A DNA stretch of 64,000 nt, taken from the NCBI RefSeq assembly GCF_000167355.1, contig NZ_AAEW02000002.1, positions 62,001 to 126,000 of the forward strand, read 5' to 3'. The notes under the pieces are model-generated. The model saw only the letters and a program-made list of their open reading frames with translations, ran no database searches and was not told the origin of the DNA. Shown one piece after another: positions 1-28,699 of the stretch. The DNA comes from Desulfuromonas acetoxidans DSM 684 (GTDB lineage: Bacteria; Desulfobacterota; Desulfuromonadia; Desulfuromonadales; Desulfuromonadaceae). The position numbers and the translations under genes are program-made. How positions within the stretch are numbered: the first letter of the stretch is position 1; every line of letters begins with the position of its first letter.

Positions 1-2
1 GT

Positions 3-935
3 GGGAAAGTGACGACGCTGTTCCAGACCTACGAATTGTCCGAGGACCGCGTCCAAGCGTTGTTGGCCGACAATGTTCCCCTGGATGCGATCAACCGGGC
101 AAAGGAGGCTCTCAACAAATCTCCAAAGGATCTGGAGTGGGCGCTGCGTGGGATGAAAAGGGGGATTGCCGGTCGCATCCGCAAGGCCGCATGCGTCTAC
201 AACAACAACCTGCTTATCAAATGGCATAAGGAGTGGGATCTGAAGAAGGTGAGCGGCGAGGTTCCAGCCTACCTGGTTCCCGGTTTTGCCTGTGTCCGGT
301 TCAAGTTTCCCTCATCTGTGCTGTACCCCTGTCTGCATGTTCACCATCCCCGCTATGGTCTGGTCTATCCGTCTTCAGGGATCACGGTTGCCACCCACCA
401 GGAGATCATGCTGGCGTTTGATGCCGGTGCCGAGATCGATGCGATCTGGTCGCTGGAGTTTCCTGTTAAACGAGCAGCGGACGGCTCTGTCACCATGTAC
501 CTACGAGAATTTCTTTCTGAGTTGGCTGTAAAACGCAATGAATACCGGGCAGCATCAGATGCGGGCGACGGCTCAGCAGCCGTCTATGAAAAGCTGCTGA
601 AGGAGTTCATGAACAGCCTTTACGGAAAATTCAGCCAAGGGGTCAATCCGCGTAACGTCACCTGCGCCAGCACGTTCGAGACCAAACCTCTCGGCCCCTC
701 CAAAGTCACTGACCCGATCGTTGCCGCCCTGACCACCGGCGCAGGTCGAGCGACCCTCTCCTCCCTGATGTTCGCGGTCGAGGCGTTTAATCAGAGTCGC
801 CCAGCTGAGCAGTGGATTGATATCGCTAGCTGCACGACCGACGGATATCTAGTCGGTCTCCCTTCTGACGAATCCTTTTCTGTCGCCGGAACCTATTACG
901 TTGAAAGCGAGCTTGAGTATGAAGAAGATATTTAA
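3..935 (+). CDS. Family B DNA polymerase, piPolB-like, palm part (5'-partial, frame breaks at 3' end)
   Basis: The frame is open to the left window edge, so the true start is probably outside; a GTG lies at position 9. Counting from that GTG, residues 198-206 read KEFMNSLYG, the Kx3NSxYG motif B of family B DNA polymerases. Residues 276-279 read TTDG, a motif C variant with D278 as the metal ligand. A TTDG-type motif C is, from memory, typical of primer-independent polymerases (piPolB) of pipolins. Where motif A (Asp five residues before a Tyr) should fall, the protein reads KAACVY at 59-64, with Lys in place of Asp. The frame stops 30 residues after motif C, far too early for the thumb; the missing part seems to continue in the next frame at 919-2565. 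It may be a decayed or split replicase of a mobile element. Family B assignment is firm, the piPolB subtype is inference. Confidence 0.7.
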   Translation, partial: GKVTTLFQTYELSEDRVQALLADNVPLDAINRAKEALNKSPKDLEWALRGMKRGIAGRIRKAACVYNNNLLIKWHKEWDLKKVSGEVPAYLVPGFACVRFKFPSSVLYPCLHVHHPRYGLVYPSSGITVATHQEIMLAFDAGAEIDAIWSLEFPVKRAADGSVTMYLREFLSELAVKRNEYRAASDAGDGSAAVYEKLLKEFMNSLYGKFSQGVNPRNVTCASTFETKPLGPSKVTDPIVAALTTGAGRATLSSLMFAVEAFNQSRPAEQWIDIASCTTDGYLVGLPSDESFSVAGTYYVESELEYEEDI

Positions 936-2565
936 GATTTTAAAGCCGAATAAGGCGGCGGACTGGAGCGTCTCGGCCGTTCTTGAGGCCTTCGATTGTG
1001 GTCAACTGGAGGAAGAGTTTAACCGCCTTGTCCCCTTCCAAATGTACCAGCAGGCGCGACGTCGCCTAGCACCGGACGAGGGGGCATGTCTAGAGATCAA
1101 GGGGATGGCGGATAACGTTTCGGCCGTTAAATCGCGCGGTCAGATCGGGTTCGACAGCTCGGGAGAACACGTCTTGATCCTGGCGAAGTTTTCGATCAAG
1201 CCTCCTCTGAAAGAGATCATCAAGGATGGTTCTGTGAGGCGTTTCGTTCTGGCAAACAAGGAGTTGCTACGTAACTTTGAAGGGCGCTGGATTCAGGCGC
1301 AGATCGATGAGACGCAGAACGGTCGCGACGAGATTTTCACCTACAACCTGTACACCCTGCCGACCTACACAAAAATCATGAAAAGTGACGGGCAACTTGG
1401 GCTGGTGGAGCAGTGTGCTCTCCGCAAGTTCAATAGCGACTTCGATATGAAAAGGCTGCCCGTCCTTGCCCGGACTCAAACCATCATAGCAGGGCGATTA
1501 CTTCCCCAGCCCTACACAGTTCCGTTTTCATCTTTGGAGCAGATGAAGATCCACCGTCATCAGGTCGACAACATCCGTCGCAGTGGCCGTGTTGCCCGCC
1601 CCGATGAGGTCATCGATCGGGTGCGACTGCGTGGCAAAAGCGTTCGTTTCCAGGGGGGAGAGGCTGCGACCGTTGTCAGAACTATTCTGCGCGGGGTGAC
1701 TCAAGGCAAGCTGCTACGTATCGGCGACGGTGCCTTTCCAGACTATCCCGAAATTGCCCGTCTTGTCTCGACGCAATGGAAAAAACTACCGCCGAGTCTG
1801 CAAGGATCTAAAGCGCAGTGGTCAACGACTGATGTCAAAAACGCGAAACGCGCCAATTGGGAAGAAGGGTTTATTCGTCCCCACCCGCTGCTGAAAAAGC
1901 TGACTGCTGAATTGTGCGCGGTCCTTTTGATCGACTGGTCTGATGCTGAATCGCGTTTGTTTTATGGTGACGATGTTCAGGACAACCGCGTCCTGGTGAC
2001 GGAGGTGGCCAAGTTGATCATGAACGGGCGCTGTTTCCCCCGCTGGCGCGAGTTGTATCGAGCTGGAGAGTTACCTGGGAAGGACGCTCTCTTGTTGTCC
2101 TTTCCTGAGGTTATTACCCCTACGATACTTGAAACCCTCAGTGACGGTGAATACACCCCCAACCCGAGGCCGACATCTGATCGCGTTGAGGTGGAATCCT
2201 ATTTTCGTCGCCTTGGCTTGAAGAATGCTGACGGTCGCGCACTGGCGCGGATTATCGCCCCTACGACACGCGAGCGCAGCGCTGCTCCGAAAAATCCAGC
2301 GGCTCAGTCCTGCCTGGAGAATTTCGTCACCTGCCTTCTTCAACCCGAATTTTCCAAGATCCGCCCTCCTGTCTGGTTGATCAAAGAGGAGCTGAGCGAA
2401 TTTGGCCTGTCAGAAAAAATTTACCGCCGAATCCGACAAACTCGCTTCATTCCTCATCAGCTGAGTCACTCTGCCTCCAACCGCAGTCAACTGCGAAAAA
2501 TGGCTCGATTGCTGGGTTTGGACCCCGCCGTGTTTATCGAGTTGACCATTGATCCCCCCGCTTGA
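919..2565 (+). CDS. C-terminal part of the piPolB-like DNA polymerase, in the +1 frame
   Basis: This frame overlaps the end of the preceding polymerase frame. The ATG at 919 gives 548 residues; a TTG at 901 is an alternative and neither has a convincing ribosome binding site. Counted from the TTG, residues 77-80 read KSRG, followed by QIGF. This matches the conserved KTRG-type motif reported downstream of motif C in piPolBs and lies about 95 residues past motif C when the two frames are joined, a sensible distance. The remaining 470 residues are unrecognised but would suit a C-terminal extension. Joined, the two frames would give over 860 residues from position 9. This is either a frameshifted pseudogene, a true two-subunit gene or a sequencing error. 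The frame ends inside the stem of a strong terminator. Confidence 0.6.
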   Translation: MKKIFKILKPNKAADWSVSAVLEAFDCGQLEEEFNRLVPFQMYQQARRRLAPDEGACLEIKGMADNVSAVKSRGQIGFDSSGEHVLILAKFSIKPPLKEIIKDGSVRRFVLANKELLRNFEGRWIQAQIDETQNGRDEIFTYNLYTLPTYTKIMKSDGQLGLVEQCALRKFNSDFDMKRLPVLARTQTIIAGRLLPQPYTVPFSSLEQMKIHRHQVDNIRRSGRVARPDEVIDRVRLRGKSVRFQGGEAATVVRTILRGVTQGKLLRIGDGAFPDYPEIARLVSTQWKKLPPSLQGSKAQWSTTDVKNAKRANWEEGFIRPHPLLKKLTAELCAVLLIDWSDAESRLFYGDDVQDNRVLVTEVAKLIMNGRCFPRWRELYRAGELPGKDALLLSFPEVITPTILETLSDGEYTPNPRPTSDRVEVESYFRRLGLKNADGRALARIIAPTTRERSAAPKNPAAQSCLENFVTCLLQPEFSKIRPPVWLIKEELSEFGLSEKIYRRIRQTRFIPHQLSHSASNRSQLRKMARLLGLDPAVFIELTIDPPA

Positions 2566-2592
2566 GGGAACTCAAGCGGGGGAATTTTGTTG
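2555..2592 (+). terminator. Intrinsic terminator after the polymerase
   Basis: A perfect 12-bp stem (CCCCCGCTTGAG with its complement) closed by a GGAA tetraloop is followed by AATTTTGTTGT. The stop codon of the polymerase C-part lies inside the left arm, so transcription ends directly after that gene. Confidence 0.85.
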
Positions 2593-2620: not shown

Positions 2621-3649
2621 ATGAAAACTGACGCCTTTTACATCCTCGAAAAGAATGTACACGTTACCGCAATTCTGCGGGCGGTTGTTGATGACGACAA
2701 AGTGAGAACCAGGCGTTACACGCTGAAGGAAATGATGGACGCTCTGTTTAAAGGAGGAGAGCTATCAGTTTCTGAACTAGTTGGAATGGTCTATTTGATC
2801 GCGACGAATGCATATCACCAAGAAAAGGTCGCTGCGAAAACAGATCCCAAAAAACGCAACATCAGGCTGCTACCGCTTTCTGTCGTGGGTCAGGTGAAGC
2901 GGCAACGCAACGATCATGCACCCGAACCGCTGGAGGGCGATATGGAACCTTTTGAACAATTTTTAGCGGACGCATTAAAGACCGCGAGAATCAGCCTTGG
3001 TCTGCCAGAGGACAACGCCACTGAGTTCTCCTACCCGCTTACAACTGCAGTTCGCAATGCCATGAGCTGCAATCAAATAGTGGATTACCTCGCTCAGGTT
3101 GAAACGGAAGGCCCGATCATGTCGGGCCGGATTAACGAGGTATTACAAGAGCTAAAGCGAATTGACCCGGACAACTTCAACTCGAATGAATCCACTCTAC
3201 TCGAAGCAAAGACCAGAGCCCACCTCAGTGTTATGTCGATTGAAGGCACCGGGAGGGACATGGCGGTTTCGATTGTTAATCCCTATGGTCGCATGATTCG
3301 GCTGTCGATCAGGCGCTTTGAGCTTCTGGTTGAAAACCTCGATGTGACCCGCTCACTGGGCGATCTCGTCCGCGAGATCGAGAAAGGAGATTTCCGACAA
3401 ACGTATATCAACACGAAGGTACCAAATGGTGAGGTTGTGGCTCGTTATACCTCGGAAACATCAACTCTGCGGGCAGCGGTGATCAGTGTTCGCAAAGGCG
3501 ATGTCGAAGACGTGGCGGAGTTCATCCTCGATGCAGACGCAGTTGTCTGTACTTATCTGGCCGTAAAACGGTTGCGGCTGGACTATACACGCTTCATCGT
3601 CCTTCGCGATGAAGCAGGATCTCGGGTCGATTTTGACCCTTTTGACTAG
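2621..3649 (+). CDS. Unrecognised protein of accessory element (342 aa)
   Basis: I do not recognise this family. The frame is open from a TTG at 2549, but that start lies inside the preceding terminator, so the ATG at 2621 is preferred. The protein is soluble, with no signal peptide or membrane segment and no cysteine motif. A run of charged helical segments around residues 20-60 and 85-140 is followed by a more beta-rich second half. The gene is 17 nt upstream of the next gene at 3667, so the two probably form one transcript. Base composition resembles the adjacent polymerase frames. A role in replication, packaging or plasmid-like maintenance of the element is only guesswork from position. 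Confidence 0.6.
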   Translation: MKTDAFYILEKNVHVTAILRAVVDDDKVRTRRYTLKEMMDALFKGGELSVSELVGMVYLIATNAYHQEKVAAKTDPKKRNIRLLPLSVVGQVKRQRNDHAPEPLEGDMEPFEQFLADALKTARISLGLPEDNATEFSYPLTTAVRNAMSCNQIVDYLAQVETEGPIMSGRINEVLQELKRIDPDNFNSNESTLLEAKTRAHLSVMSIEGTGRDMAVSIVNPYGRMIRLSIRRFELLVENLDVTRSLGDLVREIEKGDFRQTYINTKVPNGEVVARYTSETSTLRAAVISVRKGDVEDVAEFILDADAVVCTYLAVKRLRLDYTRFIVLRDEAGSRVDFDPFD

Positions 3650-3666: not shown

Positions 3667-4332
3667 ATGGATGTAAAAACGAATACGGTGGCTGGCTGCG
3701 AAAGCTTGCCGGAGCCCCCAGAAGGTTCTTCAGGGGTATTGAGGGCTGTTTTTTCTTCGACGATGGACAACGCTAAGATTCGCAAGGGGCTGTCTAACCT
3801 GTCGACCTTCCCTCCCTTCGACATCAAAGCGAAGACTCCAGCACCATACAAGGGAAAGCCGTTCACACCCGCAGAGATTGGTCTTGTCAACTATGGCAAA
3901 GAAATCAAGGTGGCACTCGCGGCAGAGGGGGCTCTGCCACGCTACATTACCCCTGAAAAGTTCGTTGCCATGATCGAGTTTGCTGACAACCCGAAATACG
4001 CGACCGTCGAATTGCAAAGTCCCAAAGCACCGGCGGATCGCCGCGATGGACTCGGTCAGCTTCTGGGGCGTGTCCTGCCTGACCACAGTGCTATCAATAT
4101 CGCCATGGGGAACCAGGGGGTTCCGATCCGTAATGAGTCCGACATCCTGCGGATCGACAGTTTTCAGATTGATGCTGGCAAGCTGGCCGCTTACTACCTA
4201 GTGTGTCGCTATCAGATCATGGGCGAGGACCGCTTGGCCGATCTCATCGCTGGTTATGAGGGGGCTCGCTATTTTGAGCTGCCGGATGGTAAGTCTGGCG
4301 TGTCAGAGTCCATTTCGAACCTGCTTGGATAA
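3667..4332 (+). CDS. Unrecognised soluble protein (221 aa)
   Basis: The start ATG at 3667 has a strong ribosome binding site (AAGGAG, 8 nt upstream). No family is recognised. The 221-residue product has a Pro/Gly-rich N-terminal 75 residues, then a more compact part with two predicted helices near residues 85-105 and 165-200; it has no signal peptide, transmembrane segment or metal-binding motif. It follows the 2621-3649 gene by 17 nt and is closed by a terminator 48 nt downstream, so it is the last gene of a two-gene unit. The good Shine-Dalgarno sequence suggests it is well translated, as for a structural or DNA-binding protein, but function is unknown. Confidence 0.65.
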   Translation: MDVKTNTVAGCESLPEPPEGSSGVLRAVFSSTMDNAKIRKGLSNLSTFPPFDIKAKTPAPYKGKPFTPAEIGLVNYGKEIKVALAAEGALPRYITPEKFVAMIEFADNPKYATVELQSPKAPADRRDGLGQLLGRVLPDHSAINIAMGNQGVPIRNESDILRIDSFQIDAGKLAAYYLVCRYQIMGEDRLADLIAGYEGARYFELPDGKSGVSESISNLLG

Positions 4333-4380
4333 ACCATGAGATCACGGTCGTATGGTCGTCCTATATGCGATAAAAACCGC

Positions 4381-4420
4381 CTGGGACTTGCGTTAGCAAG
4401 TCCCAGCCATTGTTTTTTTC
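4381..4420 (+). terminator. Intrinsic terminator
   Basis: A perfect 11-bp stem (CTGGGACTTGC and complement) with loop GTTA is followed by CCATTG and a run of seven T. It closes the 2621-4332 transcription unit. Confidence 0.85.
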
Positions 4421-4939
4421 TCCATGCTGACAAACTGATAGCCTTAAGGGCTGCTCCTGGGGAGTTCCGGCTGATCAAGCGGCGCAATAAACACCCTGAG
4501 AAGGCGATTGGCTATCACCCTGGGGGAATACTCGGACGGTTGGATATCGGCAAAACTGGCTGGGTGAGAATCTGCCTTTTTCTTGGCGAATGTGGGCAGA
4601 ATATAGAGCTTGATGGTAACGGTGGGCTTTTGAACGTATTGCGCGAGTACCATCATGTTTTGCGACTGTCGGAATTGGATACGTTTATGGATAGTTTGAC
4701 TCTTGTTATAAGGCAAAGGGAGCAATTTGCTGAAGCTGAGTCTTTGTTCGATTCTCTGCCTTTTCGGGGGCTACTTGGCAAAAGTCAGGGGCATGGCCTG
4801 GAGTAAAGTCCTTACGCAATAGCGTGTTTGCTGTTGGGGGGCTCCCCCACATCCCCCTATAGTGGTGAATATGCCCTTTCCTTGCCAACTTACAGGAAAC
4901 TCGTTAACATGCTTTTTTCTCAAAGCTAGGGATAGATCA
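4421..4939. other. Gene-poor stretch of 520 nt with two weak ORFs
   Basis: Two open frames compete here. On the plus strand a frame runs 4336-4806 but begins before the terminator, making its N-terminus implausible. On the minus strand a 93-residue frame (4444-4725) is somewhat more protein-like, with a basic N-terminal half, but I see no ribosome binding site and recognise no family. At most one can be real. The rest, 4807-4939, probably holds the promoter of the gene at 4940. Confidence 0.35.
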
Positions 4940-5956
4940 ATGTCAAACGCACCTAAAAACACCCCTGAAACAGCATTACCGCTGGCCGGATGGGAAGCGG
5001 AAAAAAGCAACCTCATCTCTCGAATGGCAATAGCCAAGCGCATTGCTGAAGTTCAACTTGATGGTTATACCAACGACGATATTGATGACATCTGGGAAAC
5101 CATTAAGCCCGCTCTCTTCTTTGAAAAAGAGAGCGAATGCCAAAGAAGCCAAGTGCATCATCCTCCCATCGATCGGCTCTTTGATGTAGCAATCTACATT
5201 GACCGATACACAAATTCGGTTTTGGAAGGTGAAATTGCACCTGAAGATCTCTGTGCTGTCTATGCGCTGAAAACGATTCAGTACGCAGAGACTCTGGATG
5301 AAATTTTGCCTGCAGCCTTAGTCTTAATCGATGCATGGCGTGCTCTTTCATTCAGACCGAGATCTGCACACCTTAACAAAAGTCTTAAAATTAAGCAGAG
5401 TCATATAGAAAAAGCGCAAAAGGCAAATAAAGAAGGTCTTTTACAACGTGACAAAGAAAGACAGGTGTTTTACGTTTTTGCCGCCTATGAGAAAATTTTT
5501 GACGCCCTCCAGAATCAAAAAAAGACTGGAAAACTAACGCCAAAGTCGCCCTTAAATAAAGATTTGTTGAGGCTAAAAAAGAGAAGATATAACTACGAAT
5601 ATGCTGCAGAGGAAATTCGGCATATCTTAGCAGAAGATGGCACCATCGATCCTGATAGCGATGATTCATTATCGCTGGATCAAATCATCTCAATTATTAA
5701 ACGCTATGATAGAGAGAAAAAGCTCGAGCAAGATAACTTGAAGAGAAAGGCAAAGGTTGTTGTCGTTTCCGACACTCCCTTTCGATGGCCCGAAAAGGCG
5801 TCAAAAACACGAGGAAACGTTGAAGTGCTATCAGGGGAAATACCAGAGTTCCACGACAAAGACCGCACAGATATACATGACCAGGTTAAAAAATGGCTGA
5901 AAGAAAAAGAATTTAGAGATTCTATCGAGAATCGGATATCTGAGCTGTTTGGATAA
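4940..5956 (+). CDS. Unrecognised charged coiled-coil-like protein (338 aa)
   Basis: The frame is open from 4862, but the ATG at 4940, preceded by TAGGGA about 9 nt upstream, is the most credible start. The product is hydrophilic and rich in Lys, Glu and Asp, with long predicted helices at residues 150-210 and 265-300 that could form coiled coils. There is no signal peptide, membrane segment or catalytic motif I recognise. The second half is more A/T-rich and lysine-rich than the polymerase genes, hinting at separate acquisition. It is monocistronic: a gene-poor stretch lies upstream and a strong terminator follows 7 nt after the stop. Function unknown; location suggests element cargo or a maintenance protein. 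Confidence 0.65.
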   Translation: MSNAPKNTPETALPLAGWEAEKSNLISRMAIAKRIAEVQLDGYTNDDIDDIWETIKPALFFEKESECQRSQVHHPPIDRLFDVAIYIDRYTNSVLEGEIAPEDLCAVYALKTIQYAETLDEILPAALVLIDAWRALSFRPRSAHLNKSLKIKQSHIEKAQKANKEGLLQRDKERQVFYVFAAYEKIFDALQNQKKTGKLTPKSPLNKDLLRLKKRRYNYEYAAEEIRHILAEDGTIDPDSDDSLSLDQIISIIKRYDREKKLEQDNLKRKAKVVVVSDTPFRWPEKASKTRGNVEVLSGEIPEFHDKDRTDIHDQVKKWLKEKEFRDSIENRISELFG

Positions 5957-5963: not shown

Positions 5964-5998
5964 AGAGCTCCAGGCCACATAGCCTGGAGCTCTTTTCT
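5964..5998 (+). terminator. Intrinsic terminator
   Basis: A perfect 12-bp stem (AGAGCTCCAGGC and complement) with loop CACATA is followed by TTTCT. It closes the gene ending at 5956 and marks the right end of the accessory block. Confidence 0.8.
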
Positions 5999-6140
5999 AT
6001 TCAGGAAATGCCCCTTCCAAACCGTCTATAGAGACGGGGTAGAACCCCCTTGGCAGGCAATCTCCGTAGTCAGCTAGGAAAGTCTCCATATCGCGATAGG
6101 AGCCAGGGCTAAACTGACATAGATTAAGCGGAGGTTTCCG
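5997..6140 (-). other. Protein-like 47-codon fragment, possible gene remnant
   Basis: A minus-strand frame without a credible start runs from just after a stop at 6141-6143 to a TAG at 5997-5999. The translation contains GSYRDMETFLADYGDCLPRG followed by a further protein-like stretch ending GAFPE, which looks like the C-terminus of a globular protein. It overlaps the end of the STAS gene in another frame, so it cannot be an intact gene. I do not recognise the parent family. The same DNA read on the plus strand can form two small hairpins (5-6 bp), which I consider incidental. Confidence 0.3.
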
Positions 6141-6492
6141 CTAACCACAAACATCGTGTCGGATCTTTGGCGTCCTTGCAGCCTTCGGCGCGAAAATACC
6201 CGACGGATTGCGCTTCGACCATAACAACGTGAGCATTTTGTCCTGTCAGTTTAAAGGTTTTACCGTGCTTTTGGGCGTATTTATTGGCAGAACACATCAG
6301 TTGTAAAATGCTGTAATCGATATCACTAACTTCAGTTAAATCAATCACGACAGAATCATTGTTTTTCAATAGTGCAAGCAGATCATCCTTAAGCTTGCGG
6401 ACGACAGCAATCCCCAGGTTACCGCGGACAGCGAGGACCTGACAGGGACCTCCCTCACTATTTTGGATGCTTTTACGTTCTAATTCGTACAT
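6124..6492 (-). CDS. STAS-domain anti-sigma factor antagonist-like protein
   Basis: This 122-residue single-domain protein belongs to the STAS family (SpoIIAA/RsbV type), which act as switches in partner-protein regulatory cascades through phosphorylation of a conserved Ser. The core is visible as VVIDLTEVSDIDYSILQLM (residues 57-75), where the usual DSSGL switch reads DYSIL, so one of the two serines is kept. The start at 6492 is chosen because GGGAGG precedes it; the open frame extends upstream to 6540 but lacks a site. It is the last gene of the minus-strand operon that starts at 9312, 73 nt after the polyferredoxin gene. No kinase or phosphatase partner is encoded nearby, so its target is unknown. 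Confidence 0.8.
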   Translation of the reverse strand: MYELERKSIQNSEGGPCQVLAVRGNLGIAVVRKLKDDLLALLKNNDSVVIDLTEVSDIDYSILQLMCSANKYAQKHGKTFKLTGQNAHVVMVEAQSVGYFRAEGCKDAKDPTRCLWLAETSA

Positions 6493-6565
6493 GGTGCCTC
6501 CCAGAAGGGCCATCAGCCGACTTTGCAAACAGAAACACAAACTCCGAGATTTCAGCTCGTTAAAA

Positions 6566-7570
6566 TCAATGGCTCAAAAAATTCGTCATCGGAATCAAGC
6601 GCTGATAGTCCTCGTAACCTAACGAACTATCCCAGTGCCCCGTTACCATTCCGAGAGTAACTCCACCGGCATAAACAACCAAAACGACAACAGGAAAAGT
6701 CCAACGCGGCAGTGAAGCTGACCAGAGTGAAAGTTTCATCTGTACGGCCGCAGTCGGGCAGGCATCAACACAGGAAAGACAGCCAGAGCATTCAGGACTA
6801 CTGACGGTTTTAAGACGGTGAACGTTCAATCGAGACGGGCAGGCGCGACTGCAAAGACCACAATCAGTACAAGTCAAAACATTGCGACGGATTTTCAACG
6901 GACTGAAAAAACTGATCAATCCCAGCAAGGCACCATAAGGGCACAGGTAGCGACACCAGAAATTTTTATAGAAAAGAGAGAACCCCGCCAATAGAAGAAG
7001 AACAAATATGGTCGTCAGCGACATATTAGTAAAAAAGTAAAGCATTTTGACATCACTGATCGCCCAGTAGGGTGTTTGCAAAAACTGTTCAAGAGCATAA
7101 ACAGGCATATCAAGTACCAGGATTTTGACGAAAAACAGCAACAGGAGATATTTCCCCCCGCGTAACAATAAATCCAACCATCCCCACATATGAAAACTGC
7201 GCCCGAAGAGCCACTTGCCAAACTTCCAGAGTCCCTCGGAAACGGTACCGACCGGACAGAGCCAGGAGCAAAATGATTTTTTTGCCAACAAACTCATTGC
7301 TAAAAATGTGAGAAAAAGAACCAAGGCTGCCGGATGAATCCGGTCAACCTGACCCGTATACAGCCAGTGTTTTAAACTTGCCAGCGCGCCAATGGGTAAA
7401 AACCCTTCAACGCCTGCAGGTCTATTGACAAAGAAGGACTCTCCCTTCATCGCAAAATGTCTGACAAAAAAACCAAACTGGATTCCAATAATCAAAATCC
7501 AGACAAAGAAGCTCCATTGCACAATCGAGCGTACAACCGTCATTTTTTCAATGTTCAACTTAATTTGCAT
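6566..7570 (-). CDS. NapH/YccM-like membrane polyferredoxin
   Basis: The 334-residue protein is an integral membrane iron-sulfur protein of the NapH/NosR/YccM type, which pass electrons between the quinone pool or periplasm and redox partners. Two CxxxCP motifs (CSWLCPVG near residue 102 and CRYLCPYG near 206) sit at membrane boundaries. Two [4Fe-4S] ferredoxin motifs follow (CTDCGLCSRACP near 235 and CSGCLSCVDACP near 260). About five transmembrane helices are apparent, at roughly 15-35, 80-95, 135-155, 180-200 and 288-308. The start has GGAG 7 nt upstream. It follows the 7583-8263 gene by 12 nt. In this context it may supply electrons for nitrite or NO reduction; its direct partner is not visible. 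Confidence 0.85.
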   Translation of the reverse strand: MQIKLNIEKMTVVRSIVQWSFFVWILIIGIQFGFFVRHFAMKGESFFVNRPAGVEGFLPIGALASLKHWLYTGQVDRIHPAALVLFLTFLAMSLLAKKSFCSWLCPVGTVSEGLWKFGKWLFGRSFHMWGWLDLLLRGGKYLLLLFFVKILVLDMPVYALEQFLQTPYWAISDVKMLYFFTNMSLTTIFVLLLLAGFSLFYKNFWCRYLCPYGALLGLISFFSPLKIRRNVLTCTDCGLCSRACPSRLNVHRLKTVSSPECSGCLSCVDACPTAAVQMKLSLWSASLPRWTFPVVVLVVYAGGVTLGMVTGHWDSSLGYEDYQRLIPMTNFLSH

Positions 7571-7582
7571 GTCATTTCTCCT

Positions 7583-8263
7583 TTAACCTTGAGCGCCGTT
7601 CAACATGCTGAAAAACTCATCTCTCAAGGCGTCCATTGACAGCTGTGTCAAGCTGATGTATTCACCCCAGGTTTTCATGCCGTTTTTCACATTCAGATAG
7701 ATGCTTTGTGGAATTTCACCAGTCTTTTTCGAGAGCAAGGTCGCTATAACCAGCTCCTGATTGGAAGCACCCGCGTTCCGAAGGTCTCGCAAAGCCCTCT
7801 GGTCGAGGATGGAATAATGAACAAAAACATCCTCAACAACAGCTTGGGCCATAAATTCTTTTGAGACACAGGCTTTCAAAGCCTGAGCCAGGGAATTTCG
7901 TTGTGTTTTAATTGTTGGTGATAAAGAGCTCAGAATGGCGCTCCATTCTCCCTGCGCCCTTTTTTGAGCTAAAAGACGTTGCGCTGGGATATCAGCTATC
8001 TTTCCAATCCAAGAAGCAATCCAAAGATCATCGGAGGACACTCCATTTCTTTTCTGTTTTACAACCGACTTTCTGTCCGTATTAAACACTGCGGCAAAAA
8101 AGGAATTTTGCACTGACGCCAAATAATACTCATCAGCGGCGGCCGGTTGATCAGGGTTATAGCTCATGTCCTGAAAGCAATGACATGTAATCGTTGGTAT
8201 GGCTGTTACTGAAAAAGGGAAAAGCAAAACCATTAAAAGACAAAAAAGGCCTCTTTTAACCAT
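7583..8263 (-). CDS. Unrecognised exported protein (226 aa)
   Basis: An N-terminal signal peptide (basic MVKR, hydrophobic core, Ala-type cleavage near residue 21) indicates a periplasmic protein. Just after cleavage lies CHCF, a CxC pair that could bind metal or form a disulfide; it is not a heme-binding CxxCH. The rest is helical, with the repeated segment type SSDDLWIASWIGK and NQELVIATLLSKKTGEIP, in two halves that look like an internal duplication (residues 72-95 and 168-190). The start overlaps the end of the CGGC gene by 8 nt and has GGAG upstream, so the two are translationally coupled. The family is unknown to me; it is probably an accessory to the CGGC protein and polyferredoxin. 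Confidence 0.7.
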   Translation of the reverse strand: MVKRGLFCLLMVLLFPFSVTAIPTITCHCFQDMSYNPDQPAAADEYYLASVQNSFFAAVFNTDRKSVVKQKRNGVSSDDLWIASWIGKIADIPAQRLLAQKRAQGEWSAILSSLSPTIKTQRNSLAQALKACVSKEFMAQAVVEDVFVHYSILDQRALRDLRNAGASNQELVIATLLSKKTGEIPQSIYLNVKNGMKTWGEYISLTQLSMDALRDEFFSMLNGAQG

Positions 8264-8708
8264 GGGGCGTCTCCTTCATGCATTGATTGTTACGGTAAAG
8301 GCCTTCCTGGCGCCTCTTTTCAGCCGTTTTACTGATCCAGGTATCTTCGACCAGATCAAGCCCAAGCTTGCCGATCAGAGTTTTCAGGTAATCGAGATGG
8401 GGGCATGTTGGCGCATGATAATTGTCTTTAGTGATACAAGAAGAAAGATGCACAACAATGTCCTCTTTACTGATCCCGTCACGCTTTTGTGCCTGACGTA
8501 TCAAGTTCGTCAGTTTTCGATGAAGTGCTCGGCCGCAGCAGCCGCCACACGTCAATGAGAGACTGCGAAAATTTATGGTTTCGGGATATACGGCAAAACT
8601 ACCGGTTCGATCATGCAGAGCCTTTTCGCAATGAAAACCTGAACAACGCTCTTGAACGATGTGGCACTGTACAATCACCAGATATGTCTTTTCCTTGATC
8701 TCGGTCAT
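8256..8708 (-). CDS. CGGC-domain protein
   Basis: This 150-residue protein carries the CGGC motif (TCGGCCGR at residues 53-60) that defines the CGGC domain family, small proteins found mainly in anaerobes and thought to bind metal through conserved cysteines and histidines. Other candidate ligands are C15, C22, C27, C91 and C102 (HLSSC, APTCPH). No signal peptide is present, so it is cytoplasmic, unlike its coupled neighbour. It lies 34 nt downstream of the HPP gene and overlaps the next gene by 8 nt within a five-gene minus-strand operon. The biochemical role of the family is not established; the link to nitrite and NO genes here is by location only. Confidence 0.8.
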   Translation of the reverse strand: MTEIKEKTYLVIVQCHIVQERCSGFHCEKALHDRTGSFAVYPETINFRSLSLTCGGCCGRALHRKLTNLIRQAQKRDGISKEDIVVHLSSCITKDNYHAPTCPHLDYLKTLIGKLGLDLVEDTWISKTAEKRRQEGLYRNNQCMKETPHG

Positions 8709-8742
8709 TTTTTCTCTTTTCCTTTATCTTCGTGACAAATTT

Positions 8743-9312
8743 TCAAAACCAGTGTTTCGGATATTTCCGGTGATAAACCAGATTGTTTGTTATGAGAGCC
8801 GTCAACAGCAGGATTAACGCTCCGAGGAGCACGGGAATAACAATATATTCCGGCCCTGCGCCTCCTTGCACACCGATCAAAGCCGTGGCACCTCCCGGAG
8901 GATGCGTTGTGTGGGTTACGTTCATGACAAAAATAGCTAGCCCAACGGCCACGGCAATGGCAAGTTGGCCGGTACCCAAAAGCGCTACCACACAGACGGC
9001 AACCACAGCGGAAACAACATGTCCGGCAATCACGTTACGCGGTTGCGCCAAAGGTGAGTCTGCAGCGCCGAATAAAAGAACAGCAGAAGCTCCAAAGGAA
9101 CCAATCAGCAACGGAAAATCCAACAGCTCGGTAAGCCCAAAAATGACCAAAATACCGAACGTCCCACTAAGGAAGCTCCACAATGAATCGTGAAATGTCA
9201 TCGAAGAGCGTGGCCCCACCAGAGGCGCATGGTAACGCTTAGGAAGACGCTTCAAGCAATTCGGTACCAGCATGTGGCGTTTCATCAAAATTGCGTTATG
9301 TCTTTTCGTCAC
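8743..9312 (-). CDS. HPP family integral membrane protein, possible nitrite transporter
   Basis: The HPP signature is clear: THTTHPPGGATALIG near residue 133, preceded by LIGSFGASAVLLFGA and SPLAQPRNVIAGH, typical of this four-helix membrane family. Some plant chloroplast and cyanobacterial HPP proteins have reported nitrite transport activity, which fits the neighbouring nitrite reductase genes. The start is uncertain. A GTG at 9312 with AAAGGA 6 nt upstream is chosen (189 aa); an ATG at 9285 and a GTG at 9396 are alternatives. It is the first gene of the minus-strand operon and is divergent from the sigma-54 activator at 9571, with which it shares the intergenic region. The nitrite role is inference from family and context. 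Confidence 0.85.
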   Translation of the reverse strand: MTKRHNAILMKRHMLVPNCLKRLPKRYHAPLVGPRSSMTFHDSLWSFLSGTFGILVIFGLTELLDFPLLIGSFGASAVLLFGAADSPLAQPRNVIAGHVVSAVVAVCVVALLGTGQLAIAVAVGLAIFVMNVTHTTHPPGGATALIGVQGGAGPEYIVIPVLLGALILLLTALITNNLVYHRKYPKHWF

Positions 9313-9525
9313 GGTTGTTCCTTTCACAGTGAAGTGTTTGCGCGTGCGTTTAGCTCCATTGCGACAACCATACCGATCTGTAAAGAAACAGTTCACCTCT
9401 GCAGGAATTTAAAACTTCCTACAATTTCCCTCATGAATACGGCAACTTGCAAAGAAAGAAAAAATATCTACGTATTATATAAAAGCTTGATCTCAATCAC
9501 ATAGATATGTCACGATGCCTAAAAT

Positions 9526-9541
9526 GTTACGAATCCGTAAC
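9526..9541. promoter_or_regulatory. Palindromic operator GTTACG-N4-CGTAAC upstream of the activator
   Basis: A perfect inverted repeat GTTACG-AATC-CGTAAC lies 30 nt upstream of the activator start in the divergent region 9313-9570. The same 6-4-6 palindrome recurs at 10950-10965 before nrfA, so it is probably the binding site of the adjacent Fis-type activator, allowing autoregulation and control of the divergent HPP operon. Confidence 0.65.
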
Positions 9542-9570
9542 CTTTATAAGAAAATTTTGCGGAGGATTCT

Positions 9571-10932
9571 TTGGACTCTTTTGAGATGATGGATATTTCT
9601 GTTTTTCAGACCATTTTAGCAAGCATGGGAGAGGGGCTGGTTTTTGCTGATCAGGATGACACGATCCGCTTCATCAATGCCGCAGCCGAAAAGATCCGCG
9701 GTATCCGCGCGCACAAATTTCTTGGTCGACAACTTTTGGATATGCACACCCCGCGAGCCAGAGCGCCCCTATCCCAATTGTTAATCAAGTTGAAGAAAGG
9801 CGAACTTAATCATTCCACGCGTACGATTCGAGTGAAAAAAAAATTCTTTGAAAATACCTACTACCCAATCCGTAATAGCTCTGGAGTTTATACCGGCACT
9901 TTGATGGTCAGCCGAGATGTCACTGAAAAAAGCCAACTAAAAGATGAAAACGAGAAATTACGTCGCCAGCTTCTGGCCGGAGAGGGCCTTGCCGGAATGA
10001 TGGGCAAAAGCGCTGCAATGAAAACCGTCTTCAAGACCATTTTGGCGACAGCCAAACTTGATTCTACCATGTTAATTACCGGCGAAAGTGGTACCGGCAA
10101 AGAACTGGTTGCCCGGGCGTTACATGAATTAAGCACCAGAAAAAACGGACCCATGATTAACATCAACTGTGCCGCGCTTCCAGAGAACCTCCTTGAGGCA
10201 GAACTCTTCGGCTATGAAAAAGGCTCGTTTACTGGAGCAGGTCAGGCGCGTTCTGGTAAATTTGAACAAGCCGATGGTGGCACCCTCTTTCTGGATGAAA
10301 TTGGCGAAATGTCCTTGTCCGCCCAAACAAAACTACTGCGGGTGTTACAAGAAAAGAAGGTGCAACGGATCGGGGGAGAAAAAGAGATCCGTATCAATGT
10401 TCGTATTGTTGCGGCCACCAACAGAGATTTGCGTGAAGAGATGGAAAAAGGCCATTTCAGAGAGGATTTGTTTTTCCGACTCAATGTCATACCGGTTCAA
10501 CTACCACCGCTTCGGGAACGACGTGAAGATATTTTGCCGCTAGCCAATCTTTTTCTCGCTAAATTCTCCACCGCGATGCATAAACCCCTGAAAAAGATGC
10601 GTAAAGAAACCATCCAGGCACTTTTGCGCTACCCTTTCCCTGGCAACATCCGTGAACTTGAAAATGTTTTAGAACGCGCAGTAGCGCTTTGTCAGGATGG
10701 CGACCTCGCTCCTGAAGATTTACCGGATGAAATCACGCGGACCGCCGCCACTGTTTCACAGGGGGCAGCCCTTATGGACGAGGGACTGACAGTGACTATG
10801 CAACACCTAGAACAGCAGATCGTTAGCGACGCTATACGCCGAGCGAACGGCAGAAAAAATGAGGCGGCAAAGCTGTTAAAAATATCGCGAAAAACATTGT
10901 GGGAAAAACTGAAAAAATGGCAAGAAACGTAA
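9571..10932 (+). CDS. Sigma-54-dependent transcriptional activator (PAS-AAA-Fis)
   Basis: This 453-residue enhancer-binding protein has a PAS sensor (about 10-120), an AAA+ domain (about 145-370) and a C-terminal Fis-type helix-turn-helix ([19 protein letters not shown], 430-448). Walker A reads GESGTGKE, the sigma-54 contact loop GSFTGA replaces the usual GAFTGA, and Walker B is [11 protein letters not shown]. There is no receiver domain, so the PAS domain probably senses the signal directly; no cofactor residue can be named. A TTG start is chosen because GGAGG lies 5 nt before it. It is transcribed toward nrfA, which has a -24/-12 promoter and the shared palindrome. It is the likely regulator of nitrite reduction genes; the ligand is unknown. 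Confidence 0.9.
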
Positions 10933-10949
10933 CGATCTCCACCCACCAC

Positions 10950-10965
10950 GTTACGTTATCGTAAC
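10950..10965. promoter_or_regulatory. Upstream activator site GTTACG-N4-CGTAAC before nrfA
   Basis: A perfect palindrome GTTACG-TTAT-CGTAAC is centred about 112 nt upstream of the sigma-54 promoter, a normal distance for an enhancer. An extra half-site CGTAAC is at 10928-10933, overlapping the end of the activator gene. Confidence 0.7.
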
Positions 10966-11055
10966 ATTCCACAACCAGCAACAGACTCAACCTTTCCTCA
11001 ACCGCAAGAAAAAAAACGTTTAATTTTCAACAACATTCCTTACCGACCTTAGTTT

Positions 11056-11070
11056 TGGCACGCCCTATGC
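11056..11070 (+). promoter_or_regulatory. Sigma-54 (-24/-12) promoter of nrfA
   Basis: TGGCACG-CCCT-ATGC matches the consensus TGGCACG-N4-TTGC at all but one position, with GG and GC exactly 12 nt apart. Transcription should start near 11082, about 75 nt before the nrfA start. Confidence 0.85.
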
Positions 11071-11158
11071 CAGAGGGACCGACAACAGAATCAAGCTGCA
11101 CGTGGAGAGAACCACCACGTTTGCTGTCACCCTTGCCCATCAAGAAAGGTCCGGAAGC

Positions 11159-12697
11159 ATGCCTAAGAAACATTTTTTCAGTGCCAGATTACGCGTATCG
11201 CTATTCCTTTTGTTTCTGCTCTCTGCCATCATGATTGCTGTGAATGGCAACACAATAACGTCAGCCCATAATGCTCGTGGAATTCCAACAAAAGGCCTAA
11301 CAACTATTGAGCTTGGGAAAACCTACCCAGCACAATATGAGTCTTGGAAAGCGACAGCCGAGCCAACGCCTGCGGACAAAAGTAAATATAAGCGTGGCTA
11401 TGACACAGACGGCATCCTTTACAGCAAAATTGATGAGTACCCCTACTTGGCTTTGTTACTGAATGGCTGGGGGTACGGAGCTGAATTTACCGAACCACGT
11501 GGGCATGTGTACATGATTGAAGACCAAGTGGATATTGAGCCAACCCGTCTCAAAGCAGGAGGCTCGTGTTTAAGCTGTAAAACACCATATGCCCAAGATT
11601 TGCAGACTGAATTGGGTGAGGACTACTTCAAAAAATCGTATGCTGAATTACGTGATGATATCCCGGCTCAAGACCAATTATTGGGAGTGACTTGTGTTGA
11701 TTGTCATAACACGGACGATCTGTCTCTCAAAATCTCTCGCGGTTTTACTCTGGGCAAAGCCCTGCCCCAGATTGGAAAGCAACCATCCGATTTATCCAAT
11801 CAGGATAAACGGACTCTAGTGTGTGCACAGTGTCACGTCACCTACACCATGCCGAAAAATGCGCAAATGAAGACAACAGATGTTCTTTTCCCATGGTCCG
11901 GGAGCCAGTGGGGAAACATCAGTGTTGAAAACATTATTGCCACGATCAAATCCGATCCCACCTATAAAGAGTGGACACAAAGCGTGACGGGATTCAAACT
12001 CGGCTTTGTGCGTCACCCGGAGTTTGAATTTTTCTCCAAAGACAGTCCACACTGGCAAGCGGGTTTATCCTGTGCAGACTGCCACATGCCGAGTACAGGT
12101 GCAGCGGACCAAACAATTTCCGACCATCGGATCATGAGTCCGTTAAAAAACGACCTAACAGCTTGTGCGGCCTGTCACACTGAAGACCCCAATAGCCTGC
12201 GGGAGATGGTTTTTGCCATTCAGGACAACACGGCAACGGCAATGATCAACACAGGCTACGCCCTGGCTGGGGTGGCAAAGCTTTTTGAGCTGGCTCATCA
12301 CAGCTCCGCAGCAGGAACCATTACCACCACTTCTTTCTATCAGCAGGCAAAAGAGGCCTATGAACAGGCTTTTTACCGCTTGATGTTTATCCAAAATGAA
12401 AACTCCACCGGATTTCACAACCCGGCGGAAGCTACTCGCATCCTGAACGATACCGAAAAGTACACAAATACTGCAGAACGCTTACTCCGTGAGGCCATCA
12501 TCACATCAGGAATAACGATTCCAGAGATTGTTGATTTGGAGTTGGACCAGTACCTGTATAACCGTGGAAATAAGAAACTGAACTTCAACCCCGACATGGA
12601 AATTGTACTGCCACAGACACCTCATTATCCCGATAGCCTGTCGGAAGAGCCCCATCAAATAACACATCCGTCTGCGAACGCTGCATTGCCACAGTAA
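11159..12697 (+). CDS. nrfA: Ammonia-forming cytochrome c nitrite reductase
   Basis: NrfA reduces nitrite to ammonium with six electrons in the periplasm and also acts on NO and hydroxylamine. The 512-residue protein has a membrane-type signal (residues 11-30) and the diagnostic catalytic heme motif CLSCK (137-141) with Lys as proximal ligand. Four standard heme motifs follow: CVDCH (179), CAQCH (222), CADCH and CAACH, making the usual five hemes. The segment CHVTY (225-229) carries the expected active-site Tyr. The ATG at 11159 is chosen because the signal peptide begins there; the open frame goes back to 11102. No nrfH is adjacent; the NapC/NrfH-type gene at 26175 in the same island is the likely quinol donor. 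Expression is predicted to be sigma-54 dependent. Confidence 0.95.
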   Translation: MPKKHFFSARLRVSLFLLFLLSAIMIAVNGNTITSAHNARGIPTKGLTTIELGKTYPAQYESWKATAEPTPADKSKYKRGYDTDGILYSKIDEYPYLALLLNGWGYGAEFTEPRGHVYMIEDQVDIEPTRLKAGGSCLSCKTPYAQDLQTELGEDYFKKSYAELRDDIPAQDQLLGVTCVDCHNTDDLSLKISRGFTLGKALPQIGKQPSDLSNQDKRTLVCAQCHVTYTMPKNAQMKTTDVLFPWSGSQWGNISVENIIATIKSDPTYKEWTQSVTGFKLGFVRHPEFEFFSKDSPHWQAGLSCADCHMPSTGAADQTISDHRIMSPLKNDLTACAACHTEDPNSLREMVFAIQDNTATAMINTGYALAGVAKLFELAHHSSAAGTITTTSFYQQAKEAYEQAFYRLMFIQNENSTGFHNPAEATRILNDTEKYTNTAERLLREAIITSGITIPEIVDLELDQYLYNRGNKKLNFNPDMEIVLPQTPHYPDSLSEEPHQITHPSANAALPQ

Positions 12698-12725
12698 AAA
12701 AACTAAGACACCTAATTTTAGAAAA

Positions 12726-12751
12726 GGTATCCCCACGTCGTTGGGGATACC
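12726..12751 (-). terminator. Hairpin terminator between nrfA and the small minus-strand ORF
   Basis: A perfect 10-bp stem (GGTATCCCCA and complement) with a 6-nt loop. The T-rich tail (TTTTC) is on the minus strand, directly after the stop of the small ORF at 12752, so it suits that strand best; it may also stop nrfA transcripts. Confidence 0.65.
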
Positions 12752-12877
12752 TCACGAATTGACACGATTAGGTTTGGATATAAGATTCTTTGGGGAGAGC
12801 TTGAATAAACTGTCCGCCATCATCCATATGTAATTTTTTTGATTTGTATCAATTTCTTCTTTTTCTATTTGCGTCAT
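12752..12877 (-). CDS. Possible small protein (41 aa), antisense between nrfA and hcp
   Basis: A minus-strand ATG at 12877 is preceded by GAGG at 5 nt spacing, a good ribosome binding site. The 41-residue product is hydrophilic at its N-terminus and has a short amphipathic segment (YIWMMADSLFKLS). The stop codon abuts an intrinsic terminator whose T tract is on this strand. The frame stays open upstream to 12937. It resembles no family I know. The combination of start signal and terminator is what makes it worth listing; it could equally be the 5' part of a small RNA gene. Confidence 0.4.
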   Translation of the reverse strand: MTQIEKEEIDTNQKNYIWMMADSLFKLSPKNLISKPNRVNS

Positions 12878-12961
12878 AGTGGCCTCAAGAAACGCCGATG
12901 AAGGATAACACGTAACAACAAAACGTATCCTTAACACTCAATCAAACCAGGAGAGAATCAC

Positions 12962-14590: not shown

Positions 14591-14616
14591 AACTTAAGCG
14601 AACATAGTTAACATAA

Positions 14617-14660
14617 ATCTTGATTAAGCGGGCAGCCTAGGTTGCCCGCTTAATCAAGAT
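14617..14660. terminator. Bidirectional hairpin between convergent hcp and efflux operon
   Basis: A perfect 18-bp stem (half-sequence beginning ATCTTGATTAAGCGGGCA) with the 8-nt loop GCCTAGGT lies 26 nt after hcp. It lacks a long T tract, but its length and position between convergent units support a terminator role. Confidence 0.7.
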
Positions 14661-14801
14661 ATTGGTAGCACCCATTGGATTATTTTTTAGAAACAACCCA
14701 CAACGAACTAAATATCGTTATAAAAAGACAGAATGTATAGCCTTCCAGTTATCTTCTCAGACCTGCTTTTCATTCCGTGAGATAGCAGTAGGTCCTCTAA
14801 A

Positions 14802-16770: not shown

Positions 16771-16794
16771 TTTGAATACCTTTCTGTATTGATC

Positions 16795-17505: not shown

Positions 17506-17506
17506 G

Positions 17507-20465: not shown

Positions 20466-20479
20466 ATAGCCCTCCAAAG

Positions 20480-20505: not shown

Positions 20506-20519
20506 GCTCTGCAAAAACG

Positions 20520-28692: not shown

Positions 28693-28699
28693 AAGATAT

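What the first reader, a model, noticed from the sequence alone, without database searches (positions are those of the whole stretch)
3..2565. Primer-independent-type (piPolB) DNA polymerase outside its usual setting
Motif B (Kx3NSxYG) and motif C in the form TTDG are seen directly, followed about 95 residues on by KSRG in the next frame. From memory, TDG-type motif C and a KTRG motif mark piPolBs of pipolins, self-replicating mobile elements. A pipolin-like element in a Desulfuromonadales-type genome would be notable. The downstream genes (2621-5956) match no family I know and may be its cargo.
Basis: partly seen in the sequence, partly recalled or inferred. Interest (0 to 1): 0.75.

Follow-up and report, generated by a model that had tools for sequence, protein, structure and literature searches.

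The report
Pipolin-like element with conserved partner genes
A mobile DNA element in a relative of Geobacter carries a DNA polymerase of the kind thought to start copying DNA without a primer, here broken across two reading frames, together with three related small proteins that travel with it and look like single-strand DNA binders.

Summary
Window 3-2565 is the end of a split B-family polymerase with motif B, TTDG and, in the next frame, KSRG; the gene starts 1 kb left of the window. Of 8 copies found in this bacterial class, 5 are one frame of about 1200 codons; this one has a frame change at about 919-935. Full-length profiles place it with primer-independent polymerases (piPolB; 5e-71, plasmid ones 4e-30), not with phage protein-primed ones (0.6). 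Whether it branches inside or beside the known piPolBs is unresolved. The setting is pipolin-like: tyrosine recombinases, a P4-type helicase, Wadjet-like genes, an island at tRNA-Lys. The new part lies downstream: genes 2621-3649, 3667-4332 and 4336-4806 are not cargo. They follow this polymerase in 8, 8 and 7 of 8 copies, were not found in 53 other piPolB-type loci, and share one homologous domain whose predicted fold is nearest to the PUR/Whirly single-strand nucleic-acid binders. Best reading: a piPolB replication module with three ssDNA-binding-like subunits. Self-priming and DNA binding are inferred; this copy may be dead.

The parts
1..935 (+). Polymerase, first piece (C-terminal 310 of 644 aa; the gene begins at L002:15001, 1000 bases left of window base 1): motif B 600-629, motif C TTDG 834-845
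901..2565 (+). Polymerase, second piece (thumb region with KSRG 1129-1140, plus lineage-specific C-terminal extension); first ATG of this frame at 919
919..935 (+). Place of the frame change (+1 or -2): from the ATG of the second frame to the TAA of the first; lies in a length-variable linker of the family
2555..2582 (+). Hairpin (12 pairs, 9 GC) with T-rich tail overlapping the polymerase stop; possible terminator or attenuator
   Evidence: consensus match only; 10 sites found in the stretch, 4.6 expected in shuffles
2621..3649 (+). Cassette gene g2 (342 aa): helical N-terminal part plus C-terminal PUR/Whirly-like domain; in 8 of 8 copies
3667..4332 (+). Cassette gene g3 (221 aa): PUR/Whirly-like domain; in 8 of 8 copies
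4336..4806 (+). Cassette gene g4 (156 aa): homologous to g3 and to the C-terminal part of g2; in 7 of 8 copies (cut by the contig end in one of them)
4862..5956 (+). ORF5 (364 aa), GC 42%, no match among the ORFs of the loci searched: probable cargo
5964..5993 (+). Terminator-like hairpin after ORF5
6047..28232 (.). Separate 22-kb respiratory block (nrfA-like and others), 98-99% identical in two other species of the genus (right end at 28180 in one, 28232 in the other); its left end at 6047 limits the polymerase element on the right
28557..28736 (+). Right copy of a 139+41-nt direct repeat (half of tRNA-Lys, whole tRNA-Glu, terminator); left copy at L002:848-1028: att-like ends of the island

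Best explanation
This is the core of a pipolin-like integrative element with a divergent piPolB lineage. SHOWN by sequence: a polymerase with intact 3'-5' exonuclease motifs, catalytic Asp of motif A, Lys of motif B, single-Asp motif C (TTDG) and a K(T/S/A)RG motif; tyrosine recombinases and a P4-type SF3 helicase just upstream; three homologous cassette proteins just downstream that are inherited with the polymerase; an island at tRNA-Lys. INFERRED: a tyrosine recombinase cuts the element out at the tRNA; the helicase opens DNA; the three PUR/Whirly-like proteins coat and position single-stranded template, perhaps as one complex; the polymerase starts synthesis without a separate primer and extends it with proofreading. 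In this copy the polymerase frame is broken between motif C and the KSRG region, so it is either recently inactivated or made as two chains (a question apart from what the lineage is; see the first two rivals, which do not exclude this reading).
For: Joined window polymerase: piPolB-type profile (42 sequences) 5e-71, plasmid piPolB profile (5) 4e-30, phage protein-primed profile (7) 0.6. tblastn in named records: only Pseudosulfitobacter and Staphylococcus plasmids, among them S. epidermidis pSE-12228-03; no match in 50,697 phage records. S. epidermidis and L. fermentum are named as hosts of plasmidic pipolins in PMC9710591. Motif C TTDG in 7 of 7 family members, 41 of 42 piPolB-type and 4 of 5 plasmid sequences; the phage set has DTDS in 6 of 7, NTDG in 1. 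PMC7544198 states that piPolBs lack the first Asp of motif C. Tree: the 7 phage polymerases set apart, SH-aLRT 99; the family one group, 100. Cassette: the g2 profile hits 7 of 277 class genomes, the same 7 that carry the polymerase; no match to g2, g3 or g4 in 53 other piPolB-type loci. hhalign of 11 profiles, 55 pairs: the three cassette pairs (4.8e-6 to 1.5e-5) and two positive controls stand alone under 0.005. PDB second look: the best 13 rows for g3 are PURA, Whirly or MRP1/2 (Z 4.9-5.8), the best 3 for g2 Pur-alpha (Z 6.8, 5.8, 5.8); Foldseek for g3: Whirly PBF-2 first, E 7.6e-3, prob 0.90. Helicase: D5_N 1e-24, TIGR01613 7e-66. Empty site: same-genus G008 has one tRNA-Lys/tRNA-Glu pair between purA and the gene that lies beyond the island here.
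Against: The polymerase is broken here, and 3 of 8 copies are. The best PHROG family for an unbroken relative (P0010) is the phi29-type phrog_1907 (1.9e-8), though only over 64 residues round motif B; for another (P0011) and for the S. epidermidis enzyme it is phrog_11768. The AU test does not reject the split in which the family and the phage enzymes stand together against all other piPolBs (p 0.484), so it could be a sister lineage to piPolBs; the tree also has long branches that meet. The 42 piPolB-type sequences were gathered with this family's own profile. G025 carries a TOPRIM/zinc primase gene between helicase and polymerase, which a self-priming enzyme should not need. The D5 helicase was found in only 2, and such recombinases in only 4, of the 8 fetched stretches. 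Foldseek had no match under 0.001 for either model and nothing useful for g2; Z values under 8 can mean only a common arrangement. The characterised E. coli piPolB could not be fetched for comparison.
Confidence: 0.7

Rival explanations
1. A decaying remnant: this copy of the element has lost function, and the frame change is a lesion gathered after integration. (Compatible with the lineage being what the best explanation says.)
For: Frame change in the window copy; one in-frame TAG in G088 C57 and several breaks in G088 C98, i.e. 3 of 8 copies broken.
Against: The second piece (554 codons) has no further stop and still matches G025 at 43% over its length; the other element genes read here are open; one lesion in about 1190 codons. 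Motif A of the window copy lacks the Pro of its 6 relatives, but so do several of the 42 piPolB-type sequences, so this is no lesion by itself.
Confidence: 0.45
2. A two-chain polymerase: the second piece is translated from ATG 919, overlapping the first stop, and the chains assemble.
For: Both simple breaks (window; G088 C57) fall at or within 3 columns of length-variable columns of the family alignment, and in both the next frame has an ATG at the junction.
Against: 5 of 8 copies are one chain; 34% of residues lie within 5 columns of a variable column, so the placing is weak evidence; by eye no clear ribosome-binding site.
Confidence: 0.12
3. Polymerase plus cassette is itself a defence or damage-tolerance module, not a replication module.
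For: Of 5 neighbourhoods scanned, 4 hold clear defence genes: Wadjet-like JetC/JetD here, BREX PglZ and BrxL in G185, ThsB and type I RM in G137, type I RM in G088 C57; G025 gave only partial helicase and HEC-05 type matches; G242 and G257 were not scanned. PMC9710591 says the role of piPolB is unclear and mentions damage tolerance.
Against: The defence genes differ from copy to copy while polymerase and cassette stay; recombinase and helicase neighbours point to an element core; no PADLOC family matched g2, g3, ORF5 or the helicase.
Confidence: 0.15
4. A phage-type protein-primed or casposon polymerase.
For: Best PHROG match of one relative is phi29-type over 64 residues; the AU test leaves the family able to branch next to the phage enzymes.
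Against: Full-length profile 0.6 against 5e-71; no phage record hit; motif C TTDG; the one Cas1 match of the genome is on another contig.
Confidence: 0.05

Closest known systems
Pipolins / piPolB (Redrejo-Rodriguez et al. 2017, recalled; PMC9710591 parts 1-2 of 3 and PMC7385651 passages read)
   Same: PolB with TTDG motif C and K/R-TRG motif, exonuclease motifs, tyrosine recombinases, tRNA target; defence cargo (the latter recalled for pipolins)
   Different: About 1200 aa (the 42 sequences compared are up to 989 aa, the 5 plasmid ones 1007-1146 with a longer N-terminal part); 220-276 residues between motifs A and B (129-149 and 148-180); 464-508 residues after the KTRG columns (162-324 and 231-328); a fixed cassette of three PUR/Whirly-like proteins not found in 53 other piPolB-type loci
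PolA-SSB primase modules of SCC and other Bacillota elements (PMC10061031, passages read)
   Same: A polymerase with its own ssDNA-binding-type partner, next to a D5_N/primase_Cterm helicase without primase domain and site-specific recombinases, on integrative elements
   Different: A-family polymerase with one OB-fold partner there; B-family polymerase with three PUR/Whirly-like partners here. [quoted passage not shown]
phi29/PRD1-type protein-primed PolB
   Same: Distant homology of exonuclease and palm (hhalign 8.5e-6 for the palm)
   Different: Shorter, DTDS-type motif C in 6 of 7; no full-length profile match; terminal protein and linear genomes (recalled)
PUR-alpha, Whirly, MRP1/MRP2 fold
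   Same: Two sheet-plus-helix units in the g3 model; best structural matches of g2 and g3
   Different: No sequence match in PDB or Pfam; Z under 8; the PUR/Whirly/MRP rows seen are eukaryotic (a bacterial PUR protein, Bpur, is in PMC3764826, search listing only)

Membership tests
piPolB | Motif C lacking the first Asp (TDG type) | tested here: met
   TTDG at 834-845; 7 of 7 family members; criterion from PMC7544198
piPolB | KTRG motif after motif C (recalled; seen in the reference set) | tested here: met
   KSRG in the window, KTRG in 5 and KARG in 1 of the other 6; K/R-T-R in 41 of 42 and 5 of 5 references, in none of the 7 phage enzymes
piPolB | Groups with known piPolBs and apart from protein-primed PolBs | tested here: met
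   Profiles and tree; but the exact branching is unresolved and E. coli piPolB was not in hand
piPolB | Match to the ExplorePipolin HMM at 1e-50 | not testable with these tools
   Model not held; own profile of 42 piPolB-type sequences gives 5e-71
piPolB | Intact single reading frame | tested here: not met
   Met in 5 of 8 copies, not in the window copy: the window gene is a broken or split member of the lineage
piPolB | Primer-independent DNA synthesis | not testable with these tools
   Needs the enzyme
Pipolin | Element encoding a piPolB | tested here: met
   As above, with the frame break
Pipolin | Tyrosine recombinase in integrative forms | tested here: met
   P0009 and P0008, Phage_integrase 3e-35 and 3e-26
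Pipolin | att-like direct repeats overlapping a tRNA | tested here: inconclusive
   139+41-nt repeats at tRNA-Lys/Glu and an empty site in G008, but the repeats also enclose a separate 22-kb block
Pipolin | Excisionase, uracil-DNA glycosylase (frequent in E. coli pipolins, PMC7385651) | tested here: inconclusive
   No excisionase among the element ORFs of 90 aa or more that were scanned; smaller ORFs and UDG not searched
Protein-primed PolB | Full-length similarity to phi29/PRD1-type enzymes | tested here: not met
   E 0.6; local match of 64 residues to phrog_1907 for a relative
Protein-primed PolB | TPR1/TPR2 insertions | tested here: inconclusive
   Motif spacing (A to B 220-276, B to C 77-79; phage 122-164 and 69-87) does not decide it
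Casposon | cas1 beside the PolB | tested here: not met
   The one Cas1 match of the genome is on contig C18, the PolB on C2
PUR/Whirly-like proteins (cassette) | Fold | tested here: inconclusive
   Best matches of two separate models, Z 4.9-6.8; pLDDT 64.5 and 79.9
PUR/Whirly-like proteins (cassette) | ssDNA binding | not testable with these tools
   Needs the proteins
Wadjet (neighbour) | JetA, JetB, JetC, JetD | tested here: inconclusive
   JetC 5e-23 (other SMC-like defence models score 2e-19) and JetD 2e-13; the two genes in the places of JetA and JetB match no PADLOC or Pfam model

The most novel reading that the evidence does not exclude
A self-contained replication module: a self-priming B-family polymerase with its own three-subunit, paralogous PUR/Whirly-fold single-strand-binding complex, an independent counterpart of RPA-type trimers and of PolA-SSB primases, in a lineage that branches at or near the root of the known piPolBs.
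Probability: 0.35. Interest if true: 0.78.

Novelty: new variant of a known kind. Interest (0 to 1): 0.6.

Why it matters
[quoted passage not shown] A lineage in which three ssDNA-binding-like proteins are inherited with the polymerase would say that at least some piPolBs work in a dedicated complex, and it offers unbroken genes (Geobacter sp. H2geo MAG, Geomonas propionica) on which this can be tested directly. It also puts piPolB-type elements, with changing defence neighbours, in a bacterial class for which the searches listed no report, and may help to place the root between protein-primed and self-priming PolBs.

Tried and rejected
Protein-primed and casposon readings: rejected on full-length profiles, phage searches and the place of cas1. 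Two genes by design: rejected for the family, as 5 of 8 copies are one frame; kept as a weak rival for this copy. Programmed frameshifting: the change is +1 or -2 and the overlap shows no slippery motif that I know; the 5 unbroken copies do not need it. Cargo reading for genes 2621-4806: rejected. Is the polymerase's C-terminal extension another cassette-type domain? hhalign against g2C, g3 and g4 gave E 0.3-0.56: no sign. Viral origin: IMG/VR scans with the polymerase and with g3 gave no confirmed relative. The first scan of genome contigs with P0006 alone gave none; the second, with an alignment, gave 59 loci. A DNA search of E. coli genomes with a Salinivibrio relative found nothing, so the characterised E. 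coli enzyme is missing from all comparisons. PDB sequence searches with the polymerase and cassette alignments gave nothing below E 0.05 (P0006 alone none); the g4 hits at 0.051-0.057 are designed proteins. A 12-nt repeat of the tRNA start near L002:11804 was judged chance. Casposon and RNA/DNA-primed PolB sequences were not put in the profiles or tree. No structure of the polymerase was predicted (both jobs went to the cassette). No other tree than the quick one was built.
Full report
WHAT IS THERE. The window starts inside a gene. On the contig (window = C2:62001-126000) a frame opens at L002:15001, 1000 bases left of window base 1, and runs to window 935 (644 aa). A second frame runs from 901 to 2565 (554 aa). 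Together they make one B-family DNA polymerase with exonuclease motifs (DAEW, HHSTAE, YALKD), motif A (DIDEKGAYA), motif B (KEFMNSLYGK), motif C (TTDG) and KSRG. The frame change is +1 or -2, between the ATG at 919 and the TAA at 933.

THE FRAME CHANGE. In the 277 genomes of the class that were searched, 7 carry this polymerase, in 8 copies (a first search of 195 relatives found 5 genomes). Five copies are one frame of 1199-1276 aa (G025, G137, G185, G242, G257). Three are broken: the window, G088 C57 (one TAG) and G088 C98 (several breaks). So the family norm is one chain. The window break and the G088 C57 break lie in, or within 3 columns of, length-variable columns, each with an ATG at the junction. 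That leaves a two-chain enzyme possible, but 34% of residues lie within 5 columns of such a column, and a recent lesion or an assembly error is simpler.

WHAT KIND OF POLYMERASE. Pfam gives DNA_pol_B_2, weakly (1.2e-6 at best, 7 of 7 members of alignment A1 at E up to 0.1). NCBIfam has nothing, neither for two unbroken relatives nor for the S. epidermidis plasmid polymerase. tblastn found no match among 50,697 phage records. Among 72,556 plasmid records it found 36 (window piece: 30 Pseudosulfitobacter, 6 Staphylococcus) or 31 (unbroken relative: 30 Pseudosulfitobacter and S. epidermidis pSE-12228-03). PMC9710591 (read: parts 1 and 2 of 3) names S. epidermidis and L. fermentum as hosts of plasmidic pipolins; that pSE-12228-03 and pLME300 are those plasmids is recalled. 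I built profiles of four sets: the family (7; the G088 C98 copy left out), piPolB-type proteins from genome contigs (42: ORFs of at least 780 aa in the 53 non-family loci, shorter ones dropped; two of them identical), plasmid piPolBs (5) and phage protein-primed polymerases (7). The joined window protein scores 5e-71, 4e-30 and 0.6 against the last three. The 42 were gathered with the family's own profile, a bias; the plasmid set other than S. epidermidis was gathered with the S. epidermidis protein. PHROGs gives one relative a local match of 64 residues to the phi29-type family at 1.9e-8; the window piece alone has only 0.0035 and 0.042 to two phage polymerase families. In a quick IQ-TREE tree of 61 rows the 7 phage enzymes are set apart with SH-aLRT 99 and the family is one group with 100, its stem long (1.82); the program warns of long branches that meet. 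An AU test does not reject the split {family + phage enzymes | all other piPolBs} (p 0.484). So the family may lie inside the piPolBs or be their sister at the base. TTDG stands in 7 of 7, 41 of 42 and 4 of 5 of the non-phage sets; DTDS in 6 of 7 phage enzymes, as PMC7544198 (passages read) describes for piPolBs. Family-specific are 220-276 residues between motifs A and B (129-149 in the 42, 148-180 in the 5) and 464-508 residues after the KTRG columns (162-324 and 231-328).

THE CASSETTE. Directly after the polymerase come g2 (2621-3649), g3 (3667-4332) and g4 (4336-4806). They were first seen by reading the neighbourhoods; profiles built from those copies find g2 and g3 in 8 of 8 and g4 in 7 of 8 (missing in G088 C57; cut by the contig end in G242), just downstream each time, and give no match at E up to 0.01 in the 53 other piPolB-type loci, held with up to 10 kb on each side, some of them short. 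A search of the 277 class genomes with g2 hits the same 7 genomes and no other. A sample of 395 phylum genomes gave g3 only in this genome and G137. No Pfam or PHROG match of g2 or g3 is below E 0.06, g4 has no Pfam match, PADLOC none for g2 and g3 and NCBIfam none for the three. They are homologous to each other: g2 C-terminal part with g3, g3 with g4, g2 with g4, over 122-126 columns. In an all-against-all comparison of 11 profiles (55 pairs) only these three pairs and two positive controls (polymerase palm and exonuclease against phage polymerases) fall below E 0.005; the next is 0.016. AlphaFold models of g3 (pLDDT 64.5, middle part about 80) and g2 (79.9) were made from the window proteins with 6 relatives each. 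The second look at PDB matches puts PURA, Whirly and MRP1/2 in the best 13 rows for g3 (Z 4.9-5.8; then SsgB, 4.9) and Pur-alpha in the best 3 for g2 (Z 6.8, 5.8, 5.8; then Hsp70 5.0 and Whirly 4.8). Foldseek itself had no match below 0.001 for either; for g3 the first is Whirly PBF-2 (7.6e-3, prob 0.90), for g2 nothing useful. The strand-helix order of g3 fits two sheet-plus-helix units. I take the fold as likely and ssDNA binding as inferred.

SETTING. Left of the polymerase in order: tRNA-Lys, tRNA-Glu, small genes (DUF1232, DUF2787), a tyrosine recombinase, Wadjet-like genes on the other strand (JetC 5e-23, JetD 2e-13, a WYL regulator), a second tyrosine recombinase, a P4-type helicase (D5_N, TIGR01613; no primase domain found by Pfam) and the polymerase. 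An exact 139+41-nt repeat that begins in the tRNA-Lys anticodon loop and includes tRNA-Glu lies at L002:848-1028 and window 28557-28736. Same-genus G008 has one copy between purA and the gene that here follows the right repeat, with about 1.2 kb more after the repeat; G002 has further inserts with a second tRNA-Glu. The 43.7-kb island is thus an insertion at a hot spot. Its right half is another block: 98-99% identical to stretches of G007 and G002 (G002 in two pieces; no match at the cut-off used in G008; in G001 only one short stretch at 77%), both starting at window 6047. The polymerase element therefore ends before 6047. GC is 49-54% in the element genes and 42% in ORF5; host genes sampled range from 46 to 54%, so GC alone says little. 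Recombinases of this kind were found by profile in 4 of 8 fetched stretches and the D5 helicase in 2 of 8. Six loci of another piPolB lineage (L045, L058, L060, L061, L067, L070) also have such a helicase right after the polymerase. Defence neighbours differ: BREX PglZ and BrxL in G185, ThsB and type I RM in G137, type I RM in G088 C57; whether they lie inside the elements was not shown.

HOW IT PROBABLY WORKS. Recombinase and tRNA repeats for integration and excision; helicase to open DNA; three ssDNA-binding-like proteins to hold template; polymerase to start and extend. The closest described plan is the PolA-SSB primase with D5-type helicase and recombinase on Bacillota elements (PMC10061031, passages read), which remarks that piPolBs prime without an SSB-like protein. 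Against simple self-priming: G025 has a TOPRIM/zinc primase gene beside its polymerase.

LITERATURE. Searches for pipolin/piPolB (14 papers), with Desulfuromonadales, with defence and helicase, primer-independent polymerase with Geobacter, PUR-alpha or Whirly, and Whirly with PC4, phage and polymerase listed no report of such elements in this class or of this cassette; most of those papers I saw only as listings, and read passages of PMC7544198, PMC7385651, PMC10936179 and PMC10061031 and two of three parts of PMC9710591. Subscription papers, among them the 2017 discovery paper and, as recalled, a 2024 survey of pipolins, were not held, so earlier notice is possible.

CHECK. On rereading the calls I corrected ranges (Z 4.9-5.8; motif spacing; GC), added the plasmid enzymes' lengths, narrowed the defence-neighbour count to 4 of 5 scanned, and took the motif A Pro out of the evidence for decay.

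Noticed in passing
window 6047-28232: 22-kb block with nrfA-like, NapH-like, hcp-like and efflux genes (named by eye), 98-99% identical in two other species of the genus, with no tRNA gene at the block's edges there, while a neighbouring chromosomal gene is 70-82% identical: a recently moved respiratory island with a sharp left end at 6047.
   Followed up: partly
L002:4630-11520 (left of the window): Wadjet-like operon whose SMC-type (JetC) and JetD genes match, while the two genes in the places of JetA and JetB match no PADLOC or Pfam model: perhaps a divergent type.
   Followed up: partly
L045, L058, L060, L061, L067, L070: piPolB-type polymerases, mostly of Betaproteobacteria, with a D5/P4-type SF3 helicase gene directly downstream: a second piPolB lineage tied to such a helicase; L060 and L061 are two copies on one contig with identical polymerases.
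   Followed up: no
L015:7500-7503 and L017:9253-13069: Two further broken copies of the polymerase in one genome (G088); in the first, the stop TAG is followed at once by ATG.
   Followed up: partly
L013:10256-11371: TOPRIM/zinc-ribbon primase gene between helicase and polymerase in G025, unexpected beside a polymerase thought to need no primer.
   Followed up: no
L016:13439-14260, L015:11999-12820: ParB-like genes near the polymerase in two copies (Pfam ParB_N), as in plasmid partition.
   Followed up: no
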